Below, piece after piece: positions 1 to 32,471 of a DNA stretch of 38,544 nt. The DNA comes from a virus. The position numbers were made by a program, and so were the translations under genes. The notes beneath the pieces were generated by a model. It saw nothing but the letters and a program-made list of their open reading frames with translations. It ran no database searches and had not been told where the DNA came from. The DNA is taken from positions 1 through 38,544 of IMG/VR virus record IMGVR_UViG_3300035674_000008; one strand, 5' to 3'. The stretch's first letter is position 1. Every line of letters begins with the position of its first letter.

Positions 1-55
1 GGGGGGGGGGGGGGGGGCGGGGGGGGGGGGCCCCGCGGGCGGCGCGCCCCCCCCC
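1..55. other. G/C homopolymer run, probable sequencing or assembly artefact
   Basis: The first bases are an almost uninterrupted run of G, followed by alternating C and G blocks. Nothing else in the window has this composition. Poly-G ends are typical of low-signal reads from two-colour sequencers or of a collapsed contig end. The leftward gene at 56-253 runs into it, so its true 3' end is not readable. Treat these bases as unreliable. Confidence 0.8.
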
Positions 56-4223: not shown

Positions 4224-4493
4224 TCAGGCGTCAGGTGTCCAGCCATCGCGCTTGTTGGCTTCGGCCACGACGCGGCTGACGTACTCGCGGGACCAGCCCA
4301 CCCGGCGGGCGACCTCGGCGAGCGTCAGGTCGGACTGCTTGGCGAGGACTTCCCGGCCCATTGCGACGACGGCTTCCTTGAGTTCGGCGCTGATGGCGGC
4401 GAGCTGCTTCTCGGTGCGGTCGTAACGCTTGACGACCTCGTCGAGGGTGCGGCTGGCGTCGGTCTCCTGGTAGGCGCGGGTGCGGCGTGGCAT
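4224..4493 (-). CDS. Leftward helix-turn-helix regulator
   Basis: This is an 89-residue product if read from the ATG at 4493. The frame is open to an ATG at 4580, but that start would place the TTCGTGATG boxes inside the gene. The N-terminal half is a helical, coiled-coil-like region (V-V-K-R-Y-D-R-T-E-K-Q-L-A-A-I). Near residues 60-82 lies L-T-L-A-E-V-A-R-R-V-G-W-S-R-E-Y-V-S-R, a clear helix-turn-helix. It diverges from the operon starting at 4649 and is convergent with 4218. It probably represses that operon and itself through the repeated boxes upstream. A GACAAT hexamer eight bases before the ATG would make the transcript nearly leaderless. Confidence 0.7.
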   Translation of the reverse strand: MPRRTRAYQETDASRTLDEVVKRYDRTEKQLAAISAELKEAVVAMGREVLAKQSDLTLAEVARRVGWSREYVSRVVAEANKRDGWTPDA

Positions 4494-4648
4494 GGGGCGG
4501 ATTGTCGCACGCCGCGGTCCGCGACTGCTGTTCGTGATCCCATCCATCTTTCGTGATGCAACTTGACTTCGTGATGTCATAGCGTGATGCTACATCACGA
4601 ACTTGCGGTACAGTAGACGCAAGCAACCAAAGCCACTGGGAGCACCTC
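4494..4648. promoter_or_regulatory. Divergent promoter/operator with TTCGTGATG boxes
   Basis: The nine-mer TTCGTGATG is at 4550-4558 and 4568-4576, with a near copy TTCGTGATC at 4531-4539. CGTGATG at 4583-4589 pairs with CATCACGAA at 4593-4601 to form a 7-3-7 perfect palindrome. The copies fall 18-19 bp apart and then 13 bp. TTGACT at 4563-4568 followed after 17 bp by GATGCT could be the rightward promoter, lying inside the boxes, so occupation should repress it. The regulator encoded at 4224-4493 is the obvious candidate ligand. Confidence 0.65.
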
Positions 4649-5065
4649 ATGACCGCCACGAAGCCGTTCCACCTCGGCGACATCCTGTCCGTCACGACGG
4701 GCTGCCTCGTCTTGCCGCGACACATCGACGGCGTCTACGACATCTTGAACTGGATGACGGGTGACAACCTGTTCACCCACCAGCTTCCCCGCGCCTGCGG
4801 CGAGTGCGAGCCGCACCTCAAGGCGCAGCACCCGGATCTGGCGGACGTGTCGGTGCCGGAGTTCGACGACGGCGACCTCGACCACGTCAAGGCCCAGGTT
4901 GAGGCGTGGCTGGCGACGCAGGTCGAGCGGTTCGGCGAGTTCCGCGAGGTGGCACCTCTCAGCGGCGGCGACCACACGGTCATCGACCCGCTAGTCGAGC
5001 TCGCGATGAACCACCCGCATCTGCAGGTCATCCCCGTGCGCGTCGACGAGGGCGGTGCCGCGTGA
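4649..5065 (+). CDS. Conserved actinophage protein (DUF7736-like)
   Basis: This is a 138-residue protein from an ATG with a GGGAGCACC ribosome-binding region. It opens with F-H-L-G-D-I-L-S-V-T-T-G, then H-I-D-G-V-Y-D-I-L-N-W-M-T-G-D-N-L-F-T-H-Q-L-P-R. I recall this block as highly conserved in Streptomyces and actinophage proteins (I believe DUF7736); this is not verified. A C-G-E-C pair follows. As first gene of the operon under the 4494-4648 operator it is an early product. The biochemical function is unknown. Confidence 0.7.
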   Translation: MTATKPFHLGDILSVTTGCLVLPRHIDGVYDILNWMTGDNLFTHQLPRACGECEPHLKAQHPDLADVSVPEFDDGDLDHVKAQVEAWLATQVERFGEFREVAPLSGGDHTVIDPLVELAMNHPHLQVIPVRVDEGGAA

Positions 5066-5322
5066 GCGCCCGCACCGCCCGCCGGATGGCGGACCGCGCC
5101 GAGGCCAACCGCAACACCTGCGGCATCCCGCCCGGCGACTGGGCGGCGATGTCCCGCAACCAGAGGAAGCGTGCTGTGTCCCGCGCCCGACGGCAGGCCG
5201 TTGCGTGCCCGACGTGCGGCGACCCGGTTCCGGGGCTGCTGGCCGGCTGCGCGAAGGACGCCTGCCGGACGGCCGCGCACGCCTACGACGCCCAACTCGA
5301 TGCCAGGTGTGACCGTGACTGA
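5062..5322 (+). CDS. Small zinc-ribbon-like protein
   Basis: This is an 86-residue product from a GTG overlapping the previous stop. The N-terminal half is basic and Asn/Arg rich (S-R-N-Q-R-K-R-A-V-S-R-A-R-R). Then come V-A-C-P-T-C-G-D-P and, about 20 residues later, G-C-A-K-D-A-C-R, giving a four-cysteine arrangement consistent with a zinc ribbon. It overlaps the start of the exonuclease gene by a few bases. A nucleic-acid partner role for the exonuclease is only an inference from position. Confidence 0.6.
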   Translation: MSARTARRMADRAEANRNTCGIPPGDWAAMSRNQRKRAVSRARRQAVACPTCGDPVPGLLAGCAKDACRTAAHAYDAQLDARCDRD

Positions 5323-6391
5323 CCTCGACCTCGAGACCGACGCCGCCGAGGTGATCCGGCGGGACCTGCCGTTCCACTCCGTGGAGGAGTCCGACGACGG
5401 CCGCTGGTACATCATCGACGGGCAGCGCCTCATGTCGGTGACCACCGCGTTCAACGCCATCGCGAAGCGCGGGCTGGTGCCGTGGGCGGGCAAGCTCGCC
5501 GCGGAGCAGGCGTTCCTTGAGCTGCCCACGCTCGTGCTGGCGTCGCGTCGCCGGCCGTGTGAGCGCACCTCCAATCGGTGCGCCCACGACCCGGCCGAGG
5601 TGTGTGAGCGCTGCCCCTGTCGGGAGTGCCGCGCCTGCGTCGCGAAGTGGGTCGGTGACCGTCACCTGCGCGAGTCGGCCCGCCGCGCCGACGAAGGCAC
5701 CCGCGTCCACGACGTGGCCGAGTGGTGGTCGTTCCACGGAGAAATCCGCGACCACGACGAGGGCATCGCCTCCTATGTGAAGTCGTTCCAGGCGTTCGTC
5801 GACGAATACGGCATCACCCCCGACGACGTACTGATGGCCGAGGCGCTGCTCGTGCACCGCGACATCGGCGCCGCCGGCACCACCGACGGAATCATCCGCT
5901 TCCACGCCGACCGGACCGAGGCGGCGGCGAAGCTGATTTCCCGGCTGCTGCAGGTGCCGTGGAAGCAGGCGCAGAAGCGGCACCTGACCGTGGACCTGCT
6001 CATCGACTACAAGACCCGGGAGGGCGACGCGGCGAAGCTGTACCCGGAGAACGCGCTGCAGCTCGCCGGGTACCGGCACTTCCCCGTCGTCCGGGTGAAG
6101 AACTCCGACCACGAGGAGCCGTTGCAGCCCACCGACGGTGGCCTGATCGTGCAGCTGCGCCCGGACGGATACACCGCCCGCCCTGTGGTGTGTGACGAGG
6201 CCACCTACCGCGACGGGTTCCTGAACGCGCTGAACCTGTACCGCTGGCTCGTCGAGGACGGCCCGGCGTCGATCTCCTCCCGCACGTTCGTCCTCCCCGA
6301 GACGGTGGCCGCCCGCGCCCGCAAGGCCGCGAAGGACCCCGCCGACGCATCCGCGACTTCTCCCGCCGACTCCGCAGCCCCGGCCGCGTAA
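5315..6391 (+). CDS. PD-(D/E)XK exonuclease, RecB/Cas4-like
   Basis: GTG 5315 has AGG seven bases upstream and overlaps the previous stop, giving 358 residues. ATG 5300 or GTG 5309 are alternatives. The nuclease core is visible: H132 in G-T-R-V-H-D-V, E176 in M-A-E-A-L-L, D191 in G-T-T-D-G-I, D231-x-K233 in L-I-D-Y-K-T and Q249-L-x-x-Y253. This is the order found in RecB-like and Cas4-like 5'-3' exonucleases. Seven cysteines lie between residues 82 and 108, a probable metal-binding insert in front of the catalytic core. With the gp3-like protein, HNH, resolvase and SSB it forms the recombination block. Confidence 0.85.
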   Translation: MTDLDLETDAAEVIRRDLPFHSVEESDDGRWYIIDGQRLMSVTTAFNAIAKRGLVPWAGKLAAEQAFLELPTLVLASRRRPCERTSNRCAHDPAEVCERCPCRECRACVAKWVGDRHLRESARRADEGTRVHDVAEWWSFHGEIRDHDEGIASYVKSFQAFVDEYGITPDDVLMAEALLVHRDIGAAGTTDGIIRFHADRTEAAAKLISRLLQVPWKQAQKRHLTVDLLIDYKTREGDAAKLYPENALQLAGYRHFPVVRVKNSDHEEPLQPTDGGLIVQLRPDGYTARPVVCDEATYRDGFLNALNLYRWLVEDGPASISSRTFVLPETVAARARKAAKDPADASATSPADSAAPAA

Positions 6392-6401
6392 GGAGCCCAC
6401 C

Positions 6402-7610
6402 TTGCCCATCAAGACCGTCCAGTCGCGCCTCACCCAGGTCGGGGTGATCCGCCTCGGCGAGCAGCGCGTCTCCCAGCGCGGCAGCAAGTACCCGGCGAAG
6501 CTCGAAACCTTCCGCTTCACGTCCCCGTCGAAGCCGCTGATCGACGCCGTCGCCGCCCTGTACGGCGGTGAGGTGAAGCCGTGGCAGGCCACCACCGGCC
6601 CGCAGTTCGAGGTCGTCACCGGCGCGAAGGAGGTGCCGGTGCTGGTGCCGCCGCAGCGCATCGACCCGAACCTCGAACTGTGGGGCAACGGGTTCCGGTC
6701 GCGCATGTGTGACGGGGAGACGGAGAAGCTGCGCAACCAGCCGTGCTTGTGCGCCGCAGCGGCGGCGGCCGGCCGTCGGGCGGATCCGCGGGAGACGTGT
6801 AAACCGACGACGCGGATGTCGCTGATGCTGGCCGACGTGCCGACCCTGGGCACCTTCAAGATCGAGTCGCACGGATGGAACGCCGCCGCTGAGCTGCCCA
6901 CCCTGGCGTCCGCGATCGAGAACGCCCCGCAGCCGATCCCGGCCCGTCTGGTGGTGGAGTTGCGGGAGAAGAAGGTGTTCGACCCGTCGAAGCCGCCGAA
7001 GGAGCAGGTCGAGACCCGCACGTTCATGGTGCCGGTGGTCCTGTTCGACTTCGTGACTCCGGCGCAGGCGTTCGGCGGCCAGATCGGCGCCGCCGCCCGC
7101 ACCGCTCTGGGCGGCGGGCGGCCCGCGCGGCAGGCGATCGAGTCGGCCGAGCCCGCGCAGGTTGAGCCGGCCCGGCGCAAGTACACGCCCGCCGAGTACG
7201 TGGGCATGGCGGAGCTCGCCACGAACATCGACCAAGTCCGGGCGTTGTGGACCGACGCGAACACCGACGAGGCACTGACCGACGCGGTGAAGGCGGCGCT
7301 GCAGGGGCGGGTCGGCGAGCTGAAGACTGCGGCGCAGAAGCCGGCCGAGGCTCAGGCGGAGGCGCAGCCCACGAACCAGCCCGCCCCTACCGCCCCGCAG
7401 GGCGACGTGCACGAGGTCGTCGACGCCGAGGTGGAGCCCAACGCCGACCAGGTCTGGATGCAGATCCAGGCCGCCGCCGGCGGGAAGGGCTGGAACGCCC
7501 CGCAGTTGGAGGAGCGGGTGCTGGCATTCCTGCACAAGCCGTCGGACGAGGCCAACGGGTTCGACCTGCAGCGCTTCCTCACCGCAGTCCAGGCGGGTGA
7601 GGTCGCGTGA
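6402..7610 (+). CDS. phiC31 gp3-like (recombination directionality factor family) protein
   Basis: This is a 402-residue product from a TTG start with a strong AAGGAG eight bases upstream. The first 250 residues follow the actinophage/Streptomyces family I recall as Gp3-like: V-Q-S-R-L-T-Q-V-G-V-I-R-L-G, K-L-E-T-F-R-F-T-S, a Cys cluster around residues 102-130, then T-R-M-S-L-M-L-A-D-V-P-T-L-G-T-F and E-S-H-G-W-N-A-A-A-E-L-P. In phiC31/phiBT1 the homologue switches serine integrase toward excision. It also sits among replication genes there, so a second DNA-metabolic role is plausible. The C-terminal 150 residues add an Ala/Gln-rich linker and a small helical domain. No integrase is in view, so the RDF role is unproven. 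Confidence 0.65.
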   Translation: MPIKTVQSRLTQVGVIRLGEQRVSQRGSKYPAKLETFRFTSPSKPLIDAVAALYGGEVKPWQATTGPQFEVVTGAKEVPVLVPPQRIDPNLELWGNGFRSRMCDGETEKLRNQPCLCAAAAAAGRRADPRETCKPTTRMSLMLADVPTLGTFKIESHGWNAAAELPTLASAIENAPQPIPARLVVELREKKVFDPSKPPKEQVETRTFMVPVVLFDFVTPAQAFGGQIGAAARTALGGGRPARQAIESAEPAQVEPARRKYTPAEYVGMAELATNIDQVRALWTDANTDEALTDAVKAALQGRVGELKTAAQKPAEAQAEAQPTNQPAPTAPQGDVHEVVDAEVEPNADQVWMQIQAAAGGKGWNAPQLEERVLAFLHKPSDEANGFDLQRFLTAVQAGEVA

Positions 7611-28365: not shown

Positions 28366-30417
28366 ATGCCCGCCCTGCCCACCCGGACCCTCGGCCACGT
28401 CGACGACAGCACCTACGGTGCGCTGCTGTCCGACGCGCTCGAACACGTCGGCGACGTGCAGTGGCCGACGTCGACGCGCACGTATTCGATGATGCGCCGC
28501 GATCCGCAGCTCACCGGTGTGGTCGACGCCTATCAGCTGTTGGTGCGGCGGGCTTCGTGGACGCTGGACCCGGCGGGCTGCCGGCCGGAGGTGTGCCGTC
28601 TCGTCGCCGACGACTTGGGCCTGCCGCTGGCCGGTCAGGACCAGCCGGGTGCGGCGCGGGTGCGTGGCGTGTCGTGGCGTGAGCACCTGCGGATGGTCAC
28701 CGAGTCGTTCGTGTTCGGCCACTACGGCTTCGAGCTCGAAGCCGACGTGTCCAGCGGTCAGGCGCGCCTGGCCGGGCTGTGGGAGCGGCCGCCGCACACG
28801 ATCAGCCGGATCCACGCCGACGGGAAGACCGGCGCGCTGAAGGGCGTCAGCCAGACCCCGGCGTGGAAGGAAGGCGCCCCGGAGATCCGCGCGGAACATC
28901 TGGCGTGGTACTGCTTCGACAAGGGTGTCGGCTGGACCGGCACGAGCCTGCTGCGTCCCGGATTCGGACCGTGGCTGATTAAGCGGGAGCTTCAAGCCGC
29001 GCTGGCCACCGGGTCACGACGGTTCTCAATGGGCGTCCCCCTGGTGGAGTGGGCGACGGATGCCCGCCCGACCCCGGAGCAGCACGCGCAGGCCCACGCG
29101 GTCGCGTCCGCGGCCCGGGGCGGTGAGACCGCCGGCGCCGCCCTCCCCCCGGGCGCCCGCCTGGTGCTGGCCGGGCTGCAAGGCTCCGTGCCCGACACGC
29201 TCGGGTTCCTCAAGTGGATCGATTCCCAGCTGTCCGGCATGGCCCTGGCCCGGTTCATGGACCTGGGCGAGTCGTCCAACGGCTCCCGCGCCCTCGGTGA
29301 GAGCTTCGTCGAGTTCTTCACCCTCGCCGTGCAGACCGCCGCCGACGACATTGCCGAGGTCGCCACGAGGCAGGTGGCGGCGCGCCTCGTCGAGTGGAAC
29401 TACGGACCCGACGAGCCCGTCCCGGCCGTCCGGGTCGCTGACGTGCGGTCCCGGCGTGAGGTGACCGCGGAGGCGCTGAAGACTCTGCTGGACTCCGGCG
29501 GGCTGTCGTCGGATCCCGGCCTGGAGGAGTACATCCGGCGGGAGTGGCGGCTGCCGCAGCGCGAGCAGGCGTCGCCGCCCGCGCCAGTACCGACGCCGTC
29601 TCCCGCTCCGCCCGTGGCGGCATCACGCCCGCGGTCGAAGCGCCGGCAGCCGTCAGGGCAGATGGCCCTGTTCGCCGCCGCGGAGGACCCCGACCCGGCC
29701 CCGGACTACGCGCAGATCCAAGCCCAGTGGGAGCAGGCCAAAGCGGACCTGCTCGCGCAGTGGCCGGTTGCGGCGCAGCCGGTGGTGGATGAGCTCGTTC
29801 AGCAGGCCGAGGGCGCCGTGGAAGCCGACGACCTCGGCCTGCTGGGCGCCCTCGCGGTGTCGGCGGGTGTGGTGGCGGCGGTGTCGCTGCTGATCGGCGA
29901 CGCGGGTGTGGGTTTGGCGGTGGAGGCGGCGGCGGGTGTGGTGGCTGAGGCCGCCGCGCAGGGTGTCACCGTCGCCGCCCCGGACACGCCTGGCGCCGAG
30001 CGGGTGCGGCAGACCGCGGACGCGGTGGCCGCGGTGATCGCCGCCGGGTACGCGTCCGGTGCCGCACGGGCGGCGTTGCAGGTTGCGGGCGCGGACCGGG
30101 ACACGGTGAGTGCCGCGGTCCGGGCGCACCTGGACGAGCTCGGCACGTCCGTCAACGGGCTCGTCGGGGACAACGTGGGCGCGCTGCTGTCGGCGGCGCA
30201 GAACGCCGGACGCCTCGCCGTTCTTGAGGCGGCGCCCGCTGCCACCTACAGGGCTGTAGAGGTCAACGACAAGAGTCGATGCGGCCCTTGCTCGGAGATC
30301 GCGGACACCGAATTTGCCAGCCTCGCCGAAGCCGTCGCCGCATATCCCGCCTCGGGGTTCCGCGACTGCGACGGAAAGGGCCGCTGCAGAGGCTTCCTTT
30401 TTCCGCTGTTCACCTGA
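28366..30417 (+). CDS. Portal protein fused to a MuF-like head morphogenesis domain
   Basis: This is a 683-residue product. Residues 1-400 have the DUF935/Mu gp29-type portal layout (S-M-M-R-R-D-P-Q-L, W-R-E-H-L-R-M-V-T-E-S-F-V-F-G-H-Y-G-F-E, G-E-S-F-V-E-F-F-T-L-A-V-Q-T). A Pro/Ser/Arg-rich linker of about 35 residues follows. The C-terminal 240 residues are helical and end in a MuF signature: V-N-D-K-S-R-C639-G-P-C642, Y-P-A-S-G-F-R-D-C-D-G-K-G-R-C-R-G. In most phages these are separate genes. The portal forms the DNA entry ring, and the MuF part is usually a minor capsid or injected protein. Confidence 0.85.
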   Translation: MPALPTRTLGHVDDSTYGALLSDALEHVGDVQWPTSTRTYSMMRRDPQLTGVVDAYQLLVRRASWTLDPAGCRPEVCRLVADDLGLPLAGQDQPGAARVRGVSWREHLRMVTESFVFGHYGFELEADVSSGQARLAGLWERPPHTISRIHADGKTGALKGVSQTPAWKEGAPEIRAEHLAWYCFDKGVGWTGTSLLRPGFGPWLIKRELQAALATGSRRFSMGVPLVEWATDARPTPEQHAQAHAVASAARGGETAGAALPPGARLVLAGLQGSVPDTLGFLKWIDSQLSGMALARFMDLGESSNGSRALGESFVEFFTLAVQTAADDIAEVATRQVAARLVEWNYGPDEPVPAVRVADVRSRREVTAEALKTLLDSGGLSSDPGLEEYIRREWRLPQREQASPPAPVPTPSPAPPVAASRPRSKRRQPSGQMALFAAAEDPDPAPDYAQIQAQWEQAKADLLAQWPVAAQPVVDELVQQAEGAVEADDLGLLGALAVSAGVVAAVSLLIGDAGVGLAVEAAAGVVAEAAAQGVTVAAPDTPGAERVRQTADAVAAVIAAGYASGAARAALQVAGADRDTVSAAVRAHLDELGTSVNGLVGDNVGALLSAAQNAGRLAVLEAAPAATYRAVEVNDKSRCGPCSEIADTEFASLAEAVAAYPASGFRDCDGKGRCRGFLFPLFT

Positions 30418-30428
30418 TCGGAGCGCAC

Positions 30429-30641
30429 GTGCGCAACCTCGAAGGGCGCCACCCCGGCACGGCAGGGATCGCCCGGTTCTTCACCTACGAACACCTCCCC
30501 CAGCATCTGCAGGCCACGTCGAAGGCATGCCACGACCTCGCCGACCAGATGATCGGCGACCTGCCCGACCGCCCCGAGCTGACCGCGGGGCTGCGCAAGC
30601 TCCTCGAAGCCAAGGACTGCTTCGTCCGCGCCGCTCTCTAG
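30429..30641 (+). CDS. Acb2/Tad1-hairpin-like protein, candidate cyclic-nucleotide sponge
   Basis: This is a 70-residue product from GTG 30429. It consists of F-F-T-Y20-E-H-L-P-Q-H-L-Q followed by a helix (S-K-A-C-H-D-L-A-D-Q-M-I), a P-D-R-P-E turn and a second helix (L-T-A-G-L-R-K-L-L-E-A-K-D-C-F-V-R). The F-x-Y plus helical hairpin, and the A/G-L-x-x-L-x-x-A-K end, match phage Acb2 (T4 Vs.4-type) and related small proteins that sequester CBASS signals. The match is from memory and the protein is short, so function is inferred. It lies between the portal and the 2H/protease gene in the head operon. Confidence 0.6.
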   Translation: MRNLEGRHPGTAGIARFFTYEHLPQHLQATSKACHDLADQMIGDLPDRPELTAGLRKLLEAKDCFVRAAL

Positions 30642-30653
30642 AAGGGGGTGGCT

Positions 30654-32471
30654 GTGGCTGACCAGCCGAAGACGAAGGGCATGGTCGCCCTCGTCCCCAC
30701 CGAGGCGGACGCCGCGCGCCTCGCCACTGAGGGCGGCCTACCGGCCGGCGAGCTGCACCTGACGCTCCTGTTCCTCGGCGACGCCGACGACTGGGACGAC
30801 GACGCCCGGACGGCGCTCGTCGAAGCAATGCGCGGCCTCGAACGGTCCGGCGTGGTCAACGGAGACGCGTTCGCGCTGTCCGTCTTCAACCCGGGCACCG
30901 ACGAACGGGACACCTGCATCGTCCTCGGCGTCGGCGGGACAGCCGTGGACGACGCCCACACCGCCGCCGTGGGCGCAGCCCCACCAGACAGCCTGCCGGA
31001 GCAACACCAGCCGTGGGCGGCGCACGTCTCCCTGATCTACACCGATGACCTGTCGAAGCTGGCCGAGCTCGTTGACCGCACCGGCCCGATCGTGTTCGAC
31101 CGGATCCGGGTCGCGTTCGCCGACACCGTCACTGACATCCCTCTCGCCTCCCAGGCGGACGACGCTGCCCCGGAGGCGCGCGTGAATCCCTTCCTGCGTA
31201 ACCCGTCCGCGTACAAGCGGACCCCGATCCGCGCCGAGCTGCCGACGGCGAAGTCCGGCCCGGCCGGCGTCGTGACGCTGCGCCTGTACGACCCGATCGA
31301 CGACTGGGGCGCCGACTGGGGCGTGTCCGCGAAGGAGTTCGCCGCGGTCCTCGATGCCCTCCCCGACGACACCCGCGAAATCCGGCTGCTGATCAACTCG
31401 CCCGGCGGGAACGTCTGGGACGGCCTCGCCATCCTGAACACGCTGCGGTCTCACCCGGCCCGCTTCGTCGCCGTGGTGGAAGGCATCGCCGCGTCGGCGG
31501 CGTCGTTCATCGCCGCGGGCGCCGACGAGCTGACGATGATGCCGAACGCGCGCCTCATGATTCACCGGGCCTGGGGCGGCTGCATCGGCAACGCCGTCGA
31601 CATGGAAAAGATGTCCGCCGACCTGGCCGGCGAAGACCAGAACCTCGCCTCGATCTACGCCGCCAAGGCCGGCGGGACGGCCGAGGAGTGGCTGGCCCGC
31701 ATGACCAGCGAGACCTTCATCTCCGCCGACGAGGCCGTCGAGCTGGGCCTCGCGGACAGGATCGTCGAGCCCCCGCCGGGCGCGAAGGACGCGGTTGCGG
31801 AGGCGAAGGCCCGCTTCGACCTGTCGGTGTTCCAGAACCGGGCCAGCATGCCCGGCTCCCCTGCGGGGTCCGCACCGACGGCCGACCCGCCAACCCATCC
31901 GGCCGCCCCCGGCGCCGTCACCGAACTCCCGGCCGCCGAGCCGGAGCCCACAACCGAGAAAGAGGAGGACCCTGTGTCCGACGATCTGAGCGAGGTCAGC
32001 TCGCGGCTCGGCCTCGCAGACGACGCCGACATGGTCGCCATCCTGGCCGCCGTGGACGCGCTGAAGGCCCAGGCCGAAACCCCCGCCGAGCCGGTCGCGG
32101 CCGTCGAAACCGAGGCGGTGAAGCAGGAGGCCGACGAGCTCCGCAAGGAGGTCAGCGTCCTGGCGTCCACGGTGCAGTCGATGTCGGCGAAGCTCGCCGC
32201 GTCGGAGGCCGAGAAGGCCGCCGGCATCAAGGCCAGCGTCCTGGACGAGGCGCAGCGCCTCGGCAAGTTCGCCCCGGCTGACCGGGCGACGTGGGAGGCC
32301 GACTACGACGAGGCGCCGGGTGCGATCACCCGCCTGCTGAACCGGATCGAGCCCGGCACCGCCGTGCCGATCCGCGCGAAGGGCGAGGTCGGCGACGCCG
32401 AGCCGGACGTCGACCAGGCCCGCATCGCCGAGATCGACAGCATCTTCTCCGTCAAGCCGAAGGGGAACTGA
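30654..32471 (+). CDS. 2H phosphoesterase - ClpP-like head protease - scaffold fusion
   Basis: GTG 30654 is placed six bases after GAAGGGGG; GTG 30648 overlaps that site. Of 605 residues, about 1-165 form a 2H phosphoesterase domain with E-L-H35-L-T37-L and A-A-H124-V-S126-L, the paired H-x-T/S motifs. About residues 205-375 are a ClpP/S49-type protease (I-N-S-P-G-G-N-V, G-I-A-A-S281-A-A-S as serine elbow, M-I-H304-R-A-W-G). The last 170 residues are a Glu/Ala coiled coil typical of scaffolding. The protease processes the prohead. The 2H domain may cut 2'-5' or cyclic phosphodiester bonds. Confidence 0.85.
   Translation: MADQPKTKGMVALVPTEADAARLATEGGLPAGELHLTLLFLGDADDWDDDARTALVEAMRGLERSGVVNGDAFALSVFNPGTDERDTCIVLGVGGTAVDDAHTAAVGAAPPDSLPEQHQPWAAHVSLIYTDDLSKLAELVDRTGPIVFDRIRVAFADTVTDIPLASQADDAAPEARVNPFLRNPSAYKRTPIRAELPTAKSGPAGVVTLRLYDPIDDWGADWGVSAKEFAAVLDALPDDTREIRLLINSPGGNVWDGLAILNTLRSHPARFVAVVEGIAASAASFIAAGADELTMMPNARLMIHRAWGGCIGNAVDMEKMSADLAGEDQNLASIYAAKAGGTAEEWLARMTSETFISADEAVELGLADRIVEPPPGAKDAVAEAKARFDLSVFQNRASMPGSPAGSAPTADPPTHPAAPGAVTELPAAEPEPTTEKEEDPVSDDLSEVSSRLGLADDADMVAILAAVDALKAQAETPAEPVAAVETEAVKQEADELRKEVSVLASTVQSMSAKLAASEAEKAAGIKASVLDEAQRLGKFAPADRATWEADYDEAPGAITRLLNRIEPGTAVPIRAKGEVGDAEPDVDQARIAEIDSIFSVKPKGN

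What the first reader, a model, noticed from the sequence alone, without database searches (positions are those of the whole stretch)
30429..30641. Acb2-like candidate anti-CBASS sponge in a Streptomyces-type phage
The 70-residue protein has the F-x-Y start, helix, P-D-x-P-E turn and second helix of Acb2/Tad1-hairpin proteins, which bind cyclic di- and trinucleotides made by CBASS. Most studied examples come from Pseudomonas and coliphages. An actinophage example in the head operon, made late, would be of interest.
Basis: partly seen in the sequence, partly recalled or inferred. Interest (0 to 1): 0.75.

Follow-up and report, generated by a model that had tools for sequence, protein, structure and literature searches.

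The report
Divergent Acb2-like phage sponge candidate
A small 70-residue phage protein belongs to a widespread, unannotated family that is distantly related to Acb2, a known phage protein that soaks up bacterial alarm molecules; its binding site is altered, so it probably soaks up a different signal, but nobody has tested this.

Summary
The gene is real: 70 aa, GTG 30429 to TAG 30641, with an SD-like GGAG, sitting between a portal-MuF gene and a head-maturation protease. It belongs to PHROG 5120/1761 (unknown function). Homologues occur in 375 of 50,697 phage records, over 500 IMG/VR contigs and prophages of many phyla. It is not a member of Pfam Acb2_Tad1_hairpin (PF24729) by score. However, profile-profile comparison with genuine Acb2 is far above every control: score 41 (prob 95%) against at most 18 for 70 unrelated families and at most 17.5 for 200 column shuffles (made with the narrower profile, which scores 38). 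The confident AF2 model (pLDDT 96) is a short helix plus a hairpin. After its own family, its best named match among predicted viral structures is an Acb2/Tad1 protein.

"Acb2 sponge" goes too far. Two positions shown elsewhere to matter for T4 Acb2 binding (Y8, T68) are His22 and Arg56 here, both near-invariant in this family, and the K/R before helix 1 is Ser31. Best reading: a distinct Acb2-related sponge subfamily with a different ligand. Ligand, hexamer and anti-defence activity are untested. Actinophage Acb2 genes were already reported.

The parts
30429..30641 (+). 70-aa hairpin protein gene (GTG start, TAG stop), PHROG 5120/1761 family
30420..30423 (+). GGAG, Shine-Dalgarno-like, 5 nt before the GTG
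   Evidence: read in sequence
30453..30482 (+). short N-terminal helix, residues 9-18
   Evidence: AF2 model
30480..30500 (+). F-x-Y-x-H-L-P motif, residues 18-24; F18 in 52/52, H22 in 51/52, L23 in 49/52 relatives; counterpart of the F-x-x-H-x-P motif of genuine Acb2 (Y8 in T4)
30501..30560 (+). hairpin helix 1, residues 25-44, with S31 at the position of the conserved K/R of Acb2
30561..30578 (+). turn L-P-D-R-P-E, residues 45-50 (Acb2: L-P-x-G-R-E)
30573..30632 (+). hairpin helix 2, residues 49-68, carrying the near-invariant GLRKLLEAKDCFVR (54-67; Acb2: TKLEEAMFWANAA); R56 lies where T4 Acb2 has T68
28366..30417 (+). upstream neighbour: Mu-type portal with a MuF-like C-terminus (context)
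30648..32471 (+). downstream neighbour: ClpP-type head maturation protease with an N-terminal 2H phosphoesterase domain (context; true start may be 30654)

Best explanation
The protein is a small all-helical phage accessory protein of a widespread unannotated family that descends from the same hairpin domain as Acb2 and Tad1. Most likely it works as they do: several copies assemble, pockets form between the N-terminal F-x-Y-x-H-L-P segment and the two hairpin helices of neighbouring copies, and a host nucleotide-type alarm signal is bound and held away from its effector, so that abortive defence is not triggered while the virion is being built. Its pocket has been remade: Y8/T68 of T4 Acb2 correspond to H22/R56, and the K/R before helix 1 corresponds to S31. 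The ligand is therefore probably not the standard Acb2 set, or is bound differently. Shown here: real gene, family, distribution, hairpin fold prediction, distant homology to Acb2, and substitution of the binding positions. Inferred: oligomer, ligand, sponge action, late expression.
For: Profile-profile comparison of this family with genuine Acb2 gives prob 93.9-94.9 and score 37.6 (A1) or 41.2 (A5), aligned over the hairpin without gaps. Decoys: reversed profiles 8.9-10.5 and 200 column shuffles at most 17.5, both with A1; 70 unrelated natural phage and host families at most 18.1, prob 1.2, with A5. AF2 gives a short helix plus hairpin at pLDDT 96. In BFVD, after its own family, the first named match is an Acb2/Tad1 hairpin protein (Foldseek prob 0.98, TM 0.63/0.68), with five more in the first 41. 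A genuine Acb2 model run the same way recovers solved Acb2 structures and shares about seven BFVD matches with ours. PF24729 is one of the two families most often matched sub-threshold by relatives (6 of 52). H22, S31, R56, K57, K62, D63 and R67 are near-invariant; the basic ones suit a phosphate-bearing ligand. The gene sits at many different genome positions, is absent at the homologous portal-protease site of relatives, and is more conserved (77%) than portal, capsid or protease (40-55%) in the nearest relative L006. This fits an accessory gene whose partner is an unchanging small molecule.
Against: No Pfam, NCBIfam or PADLOC match for the protein itself. No solved relative by sequence, and no PDB fold match below E 1. 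The residues known to matter for Acb2 binding are not kept. Homology to a sponge domain does not prove sponge function. The reciprocal BFVD search with Acb2 does not list this family in its first 50. No link to CBASS or Thoeris hosts was tested.
Confidence: 0.5

Rival explanations
1. Same hairpin ancestry, other job: the domain was reused as a small inhibitor or adaptor that binds a conserved host or phage protein (for example RNA polymerase, a protease or a translation factor) rather than a nucleotide signal.
For: The helix-2 signature GLRKLLEAKDCFVR is extremely conserved across phages of Actinobacteria, Proteobacteria and other phyla, known Acb2 ligand positions are replaced, and the domain is fused to a P-loop-like domain in Erwinia phage Y3 and to a zinc finger in Ochrobactrum phage OH.
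Against: A protein target conserved across so many phyla is less likely than a shared small molecule; genuine Acb2 shows similarly extreme helix-2 conservation.
Confidence: 0.28
2. Head-assembly accessory: a small scaffold, cement or protease-associated factor encoded in the head operon.
For: In the window it lies between portal and protease; in Acinetobacter phages between a MuF protein and the capsid genes; in Rhodococcoides L304 it is fused to the N-terminus of a protease-capsid ORF.
Against: Elsewhere it sits next to endolysin or terminase genes, among tail and lysis genes (Gustav), near the right end (BigNuz) or in early or metabolic regions of unrelated phages. Related head operons lack it.
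Confidence: 0.08
3. Chance resemblance: an unrelated small helical hairpin that only looks like Acb2.
For: Two-helix hairpins are common; the PDB fold search gave only generic helical matches; no Pfam hit for the protein.
Against: hhalign score 41 against at most 18 in 70 natural decoy families; aligned turn LP(D/E)G(P/R)E and K-L-x-E-A; repeated Acb2/Tad1 matches in BFVD.
Confidence: 0.12

Closest known systems
Acb2 (T4 Vs.4, PDB 7uq2; Pseudomonas phage p26, PDB 8h2x; 'Acb2 homolog 43', PDB 9ptq with 3'cADPR)
   Same: F-x(-x)-H-x-P N-terminal motif, antiparallel hairpin, LP-x-G-x-E turn, K-L-x-E-A at the start of helix 2, size of about 65-90 aa, phage accessory gene
   Different: Below the PF24729 score; 23% identity over 35 aligned columns; extra N-terminal helix; about 6 residues fewer between the N-motif and the S31/K-R position; Y8, K23 and T68 (T4) are H22, S31 and R56; helix-2 signature RKLLEAKDCFVR instead of TKLEEAMFWANA
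Tad1 C-terminal hairpin (PF24729; PDB 7uav, 8smd)
   Same: Shares the hairpin superfamily; the Acb2 profile reaches Tad1 chains
   Different: No beta-sheet domain in the 70-aa protein; not matched directly
PHROG 5120 and PHROG 1761 (unknown function)
   Same: Direct family: E 4e-28 and 2.5e-27
   Different: No function assigned; the 1761 profile has an extra N-terminal part
Xandras gp101 and Statler gp57, reported actinophage Acb2 (PMC11953737, PMC13348362)
   Same: Actinophage genes proposed as CBASS antagonists
   Different: Xandras gp101 is a true PF24729 member; the window protein is not; Statler gp57 was not compared here

Membership tests
Acb2 / Pfam PF24729 Acb2_Tad1_hairpin | Scores above the curated Pfam cut-off (27 bits) | tested here: not met
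   No match for P0001; no member of A1 or A5 better than E 0.01; T4 Vs.4 and Xandras gp101 score 71 and 59 bits in the same library
Acb2 / Pfam PF24729 Acb2_Tad1_hairpin | Common ancestry of the hairpin | tested here: met
   hhalign prob 94-95, score 38-41, against decoys of at most 18
[quoted passage not shown]
   AF2 helices 9-18, 25-44, 49-68, pLDDT 96; Acb2 description from PMC10419184
Acb2 | Fold match to solved Acb2 | tested here: inconclusive
   Foldseek and VIA against PDB list only generic helical chains; BFVD gives Acb2/Tad1 proteins
Acb2 | Ligand positions Y8 and T68 (T4 numbering; Y8A and T68M impair binding, PMC12657230) | tested here: not met
   Corresponding residues are H22 and R56; genuine actinophage Acb2 also has H in place of Y8, so only T68 is a clear departure
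Acb2 | Homo-hexamer | not testable with these tools
   No multimer prediction was available
Acb2 | Binds cyclic di- and trinucleotides and blocks CBASS | not testable with these tools
   Needs ITC/EMSA and plaque assays
PHROG 5120 / 1761 | Profile match over most of the protein | tested here: met
   98.5 bits over residues 3-70 and 96.9 bits over residues 10-70

The most novel reading that the evidence does not exclude
PHROG 5120/1761 is an unrecognised sponge subfamily, related to Acb2/Tad1 but with a remade pocket for a different immune signal (for example a Thoeris-type ADP-ribose signal or an unlisted nucleotide), spread through phages of Actinobacteria, Proteobacteria and other phyla and often placed in late or head operons where high copy number suits stoichiometric sequestration.
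Probability: 0.3. Interest if true: 0.75.

Novelty: new variant of a known kind. Interest (0 to 1): 0.52.

Why it matters
Hundreds of phage genomes carry this gene as 'hypothetical protein'. Linking it to the Acb2/Tad1 hairpin gives a concrete, cheap test (expression and a nucleotide-signal panel) and, if positive, adds a large sponge family with a ligand pocket unlike those studied.

Tried and rejected
Pfam, NCBIfam, PADLOC and PDB sequence searches of the protein itself gave nothing. A profile search of PDB gave only chance helical matches. Foldseek and VIA against PDB were not informative for a 70-aa helical protein, although the same VIA run with a genuine Acb2 model does list Acb2 entries on top. 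A constructed Acb2-like probe typed in for one search is not a natural sequence and is not used as evidence. The idea that the hairpin gene and the neighbouring 2H phosphoesterase (the superfamily of Acb1) form a two-gene anti-CBASS module was tested by co-occurrence: only 3 of 49 records (the window included) have a PF13563 match, against 1 of 41 Acb2 carriers, so no general link. No CD-NTase (SMODS) in the window. No canonical PF24729 gene over the cut-off in 41 records searched as carriers of this family, but without a background rate this says little. A literature search for the PHROG names found nothing. The most relevant recent papers (Tal 2026 Science; Hadary 2025 bioRxiv; Chen 2026 Nat Commun; cited in PMC13232231) are not held, so prior recognition of this family cannot be excluded.

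Full report
OBSERVATION. It begins 12 bases after the stop of the portal gene (30417), has GGAG five bases before its GTG, and ends a few bases before the next gene. Codon-position GC matches the neighbours, and differences to nine near relatives fall 96/92/264 on codon positions 1/2/3. It is a real, selected gene.

FAMILY. The protein has no Pfam, NCBIfam or PADLOC match but hits PHROG 5120 and 1761, both of unknown function. tblastn finds it in 375 of 50,697 phage records, led by Vibrio, Mycobacterium, Erwinia, Acinetobacter, Brevibacterium and Gordonia phages, nearly all annotated 'hypothetical protein' in the rows shown. IMG/VR gives 507 relatives. One genome per species gives 64 loci, mostly actinomycetes but also Acinetobacter, Rhodobacterales, Chloroflexota, a cyanobacterium, Bacillales and Planctomycetota. 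The core is F-x-[YF]-x-H-L-P ... S ... L-A ... L-P-D-G-P-E ... G-L-R-K-L-L-E-A-K-D-C-F-V-R. The conservation of helix 2 is somewhat overstated, because the search patterns were taken from it.

RELATION TO ACB2. Genuine Acb2 proteins (T4 Vs.4, Xandras gp101) hit PF24729 at 71 and 59 bits; the window protein does not. A profile of 51 Acb2 proteins was compared with profiles of this family: probability 93.9, score 37.6, and with a more diverse set 94.9, score 41.2, aligning residues 27-61 without gaps to Acb2 19-53. Controls: reversed profiles scored 8.9-10.5 and 200 column shuffles at most 17.5 with the first profile; 70 unrelated natural families at most 18.1 (prob 1.2) with the second. In Pfam scans 6 of 52 relatives touch PF24729 below threshold (best E 0.028).

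STRUCTURE. AF2 gives a confident short helix plus hairpin (helices 9-18, 25-44, 49-68; pLDDT 96). PDB searches are uninformative for so small a helical protein. Among predicted viral proteins, after the family itself, the first named match is an Acb2/Tad1 hairpin protein of Providencia phage PS3 (prob 0.98), and five more Acb2/Tad1 proteins follow in the first 41. As a control, a genuine Acb2 alignment folded the same way gives a hairpin 13-36/41-63, finds solved Acb2 entries at the top of PDB and shares about seven BFVD matches with our model, although our family is not in its first 50. Helix and turn positions agree with the profile alignment (offset 8).

LIGAND SITE. For T4 Acb2, Y8A abolishes activity as a binding-deficient mutant and T68M lowers affinity (PMC12657230). 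T68 aligns with R56, which is R in 50 of 52 relatives. Y8 corresponds to the His of the N-terminal motif (H22 here, 51 of 52); genuine actinophage Acb2 also has His there. The conserved K/R (K23 in T4, R23) aligns with S31 (45 of 52). The assignment of K23 as a contact rests on the analogous K26 of the Pseudomonas protein, recalled and not checked here. The pocket, if there is one, is remade; basic residues R56, K57, K62 and R67 are near-invariant.

CONTEXT. Window order: terminase, portal-MuF, this gene, 2H-ClpP head protease, cement, capsid. The nearest relative L006 has the same order, and there the small protein is more conserved (77%) than portal, capsid or protease (40-55%); more distant portal homologues and Gordonia phage Vasanti lack it at this site. 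Elsewhere the gene lies next to endolysin, terminase, portal or MuF genes, in the tail and lysis region, near a genome end or in early or metabolic regions. It is also fused to a P-loop-like domain, a zinc finger, or the N-terminus of a protease-capsid ORF in Rhodococcoides. This is the pattern of a mobile accessory gene, not of a head part. 'Late' expression in the window is inferred from position only.

MECHANISM. The most likely reading is a sponge: small oligomer, inter-subunit pockets, stoichiometric sequestration of a host nucleotide-type signal. Acb2-family proteins already vary in ligand: a PDB entry shows 'Acb2 homolog 43' with 3'cADPR. Strong conservation across host phyla fits a chemically fixed ligand better than a changing protein target. 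Oligomer, ligand and biological effect are not shown.

VERDICT. Actinophage Acb2 is not new in itself (PMC11953737, PMC13348362). Recent sponge surveys could not be read, so this family may already be known to specialists.

Noticed in passing
window 30705-31082 (+): 2H phosphoesterase domain (PF13563; motifs HLT at residue 37 and HVS at 126) fused to the N-terminus of the ClpP-type head maturation protease; same superfamily as anti-CBASS Acb1, function unknown. A similar fusion exists in the nearest relative L006 (protein at 4248-6416).
   Followed up: partly
L304:5001-6866: In a Rhodococcoides fascians prophage the hairpin domain is read in frame with a prohead-protease and capsid-like ORF; L310 shows the start of a similar fusion.
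   Followed up: no
L171:2758-3177; L174:765-1130: The hairpin domain follows a P-loop-like domain in Erwinia jumbo phage Y3 and a DnaJ/anti-TRAP-like zinc finger in Ochrobactrum phage OH.
   Followed up: no
window 30153-30243 (+): ARAGORN calls tRNA-Asp inside the MuF-like end of the portal gene; Rfam finds no tRNA there, so it is probably a false call.
   Followed up: yes
window 28366-30417: The portal protein carries a MuF-like C-terminus (CGPCSEI...GRCRG), apparently a portal-MuF fusion (read by eye).
   Followed up: no
window 1-55: The record starts with a run of G and then C-rich sequence, possibly an assembly artefact.
   Followed up: no
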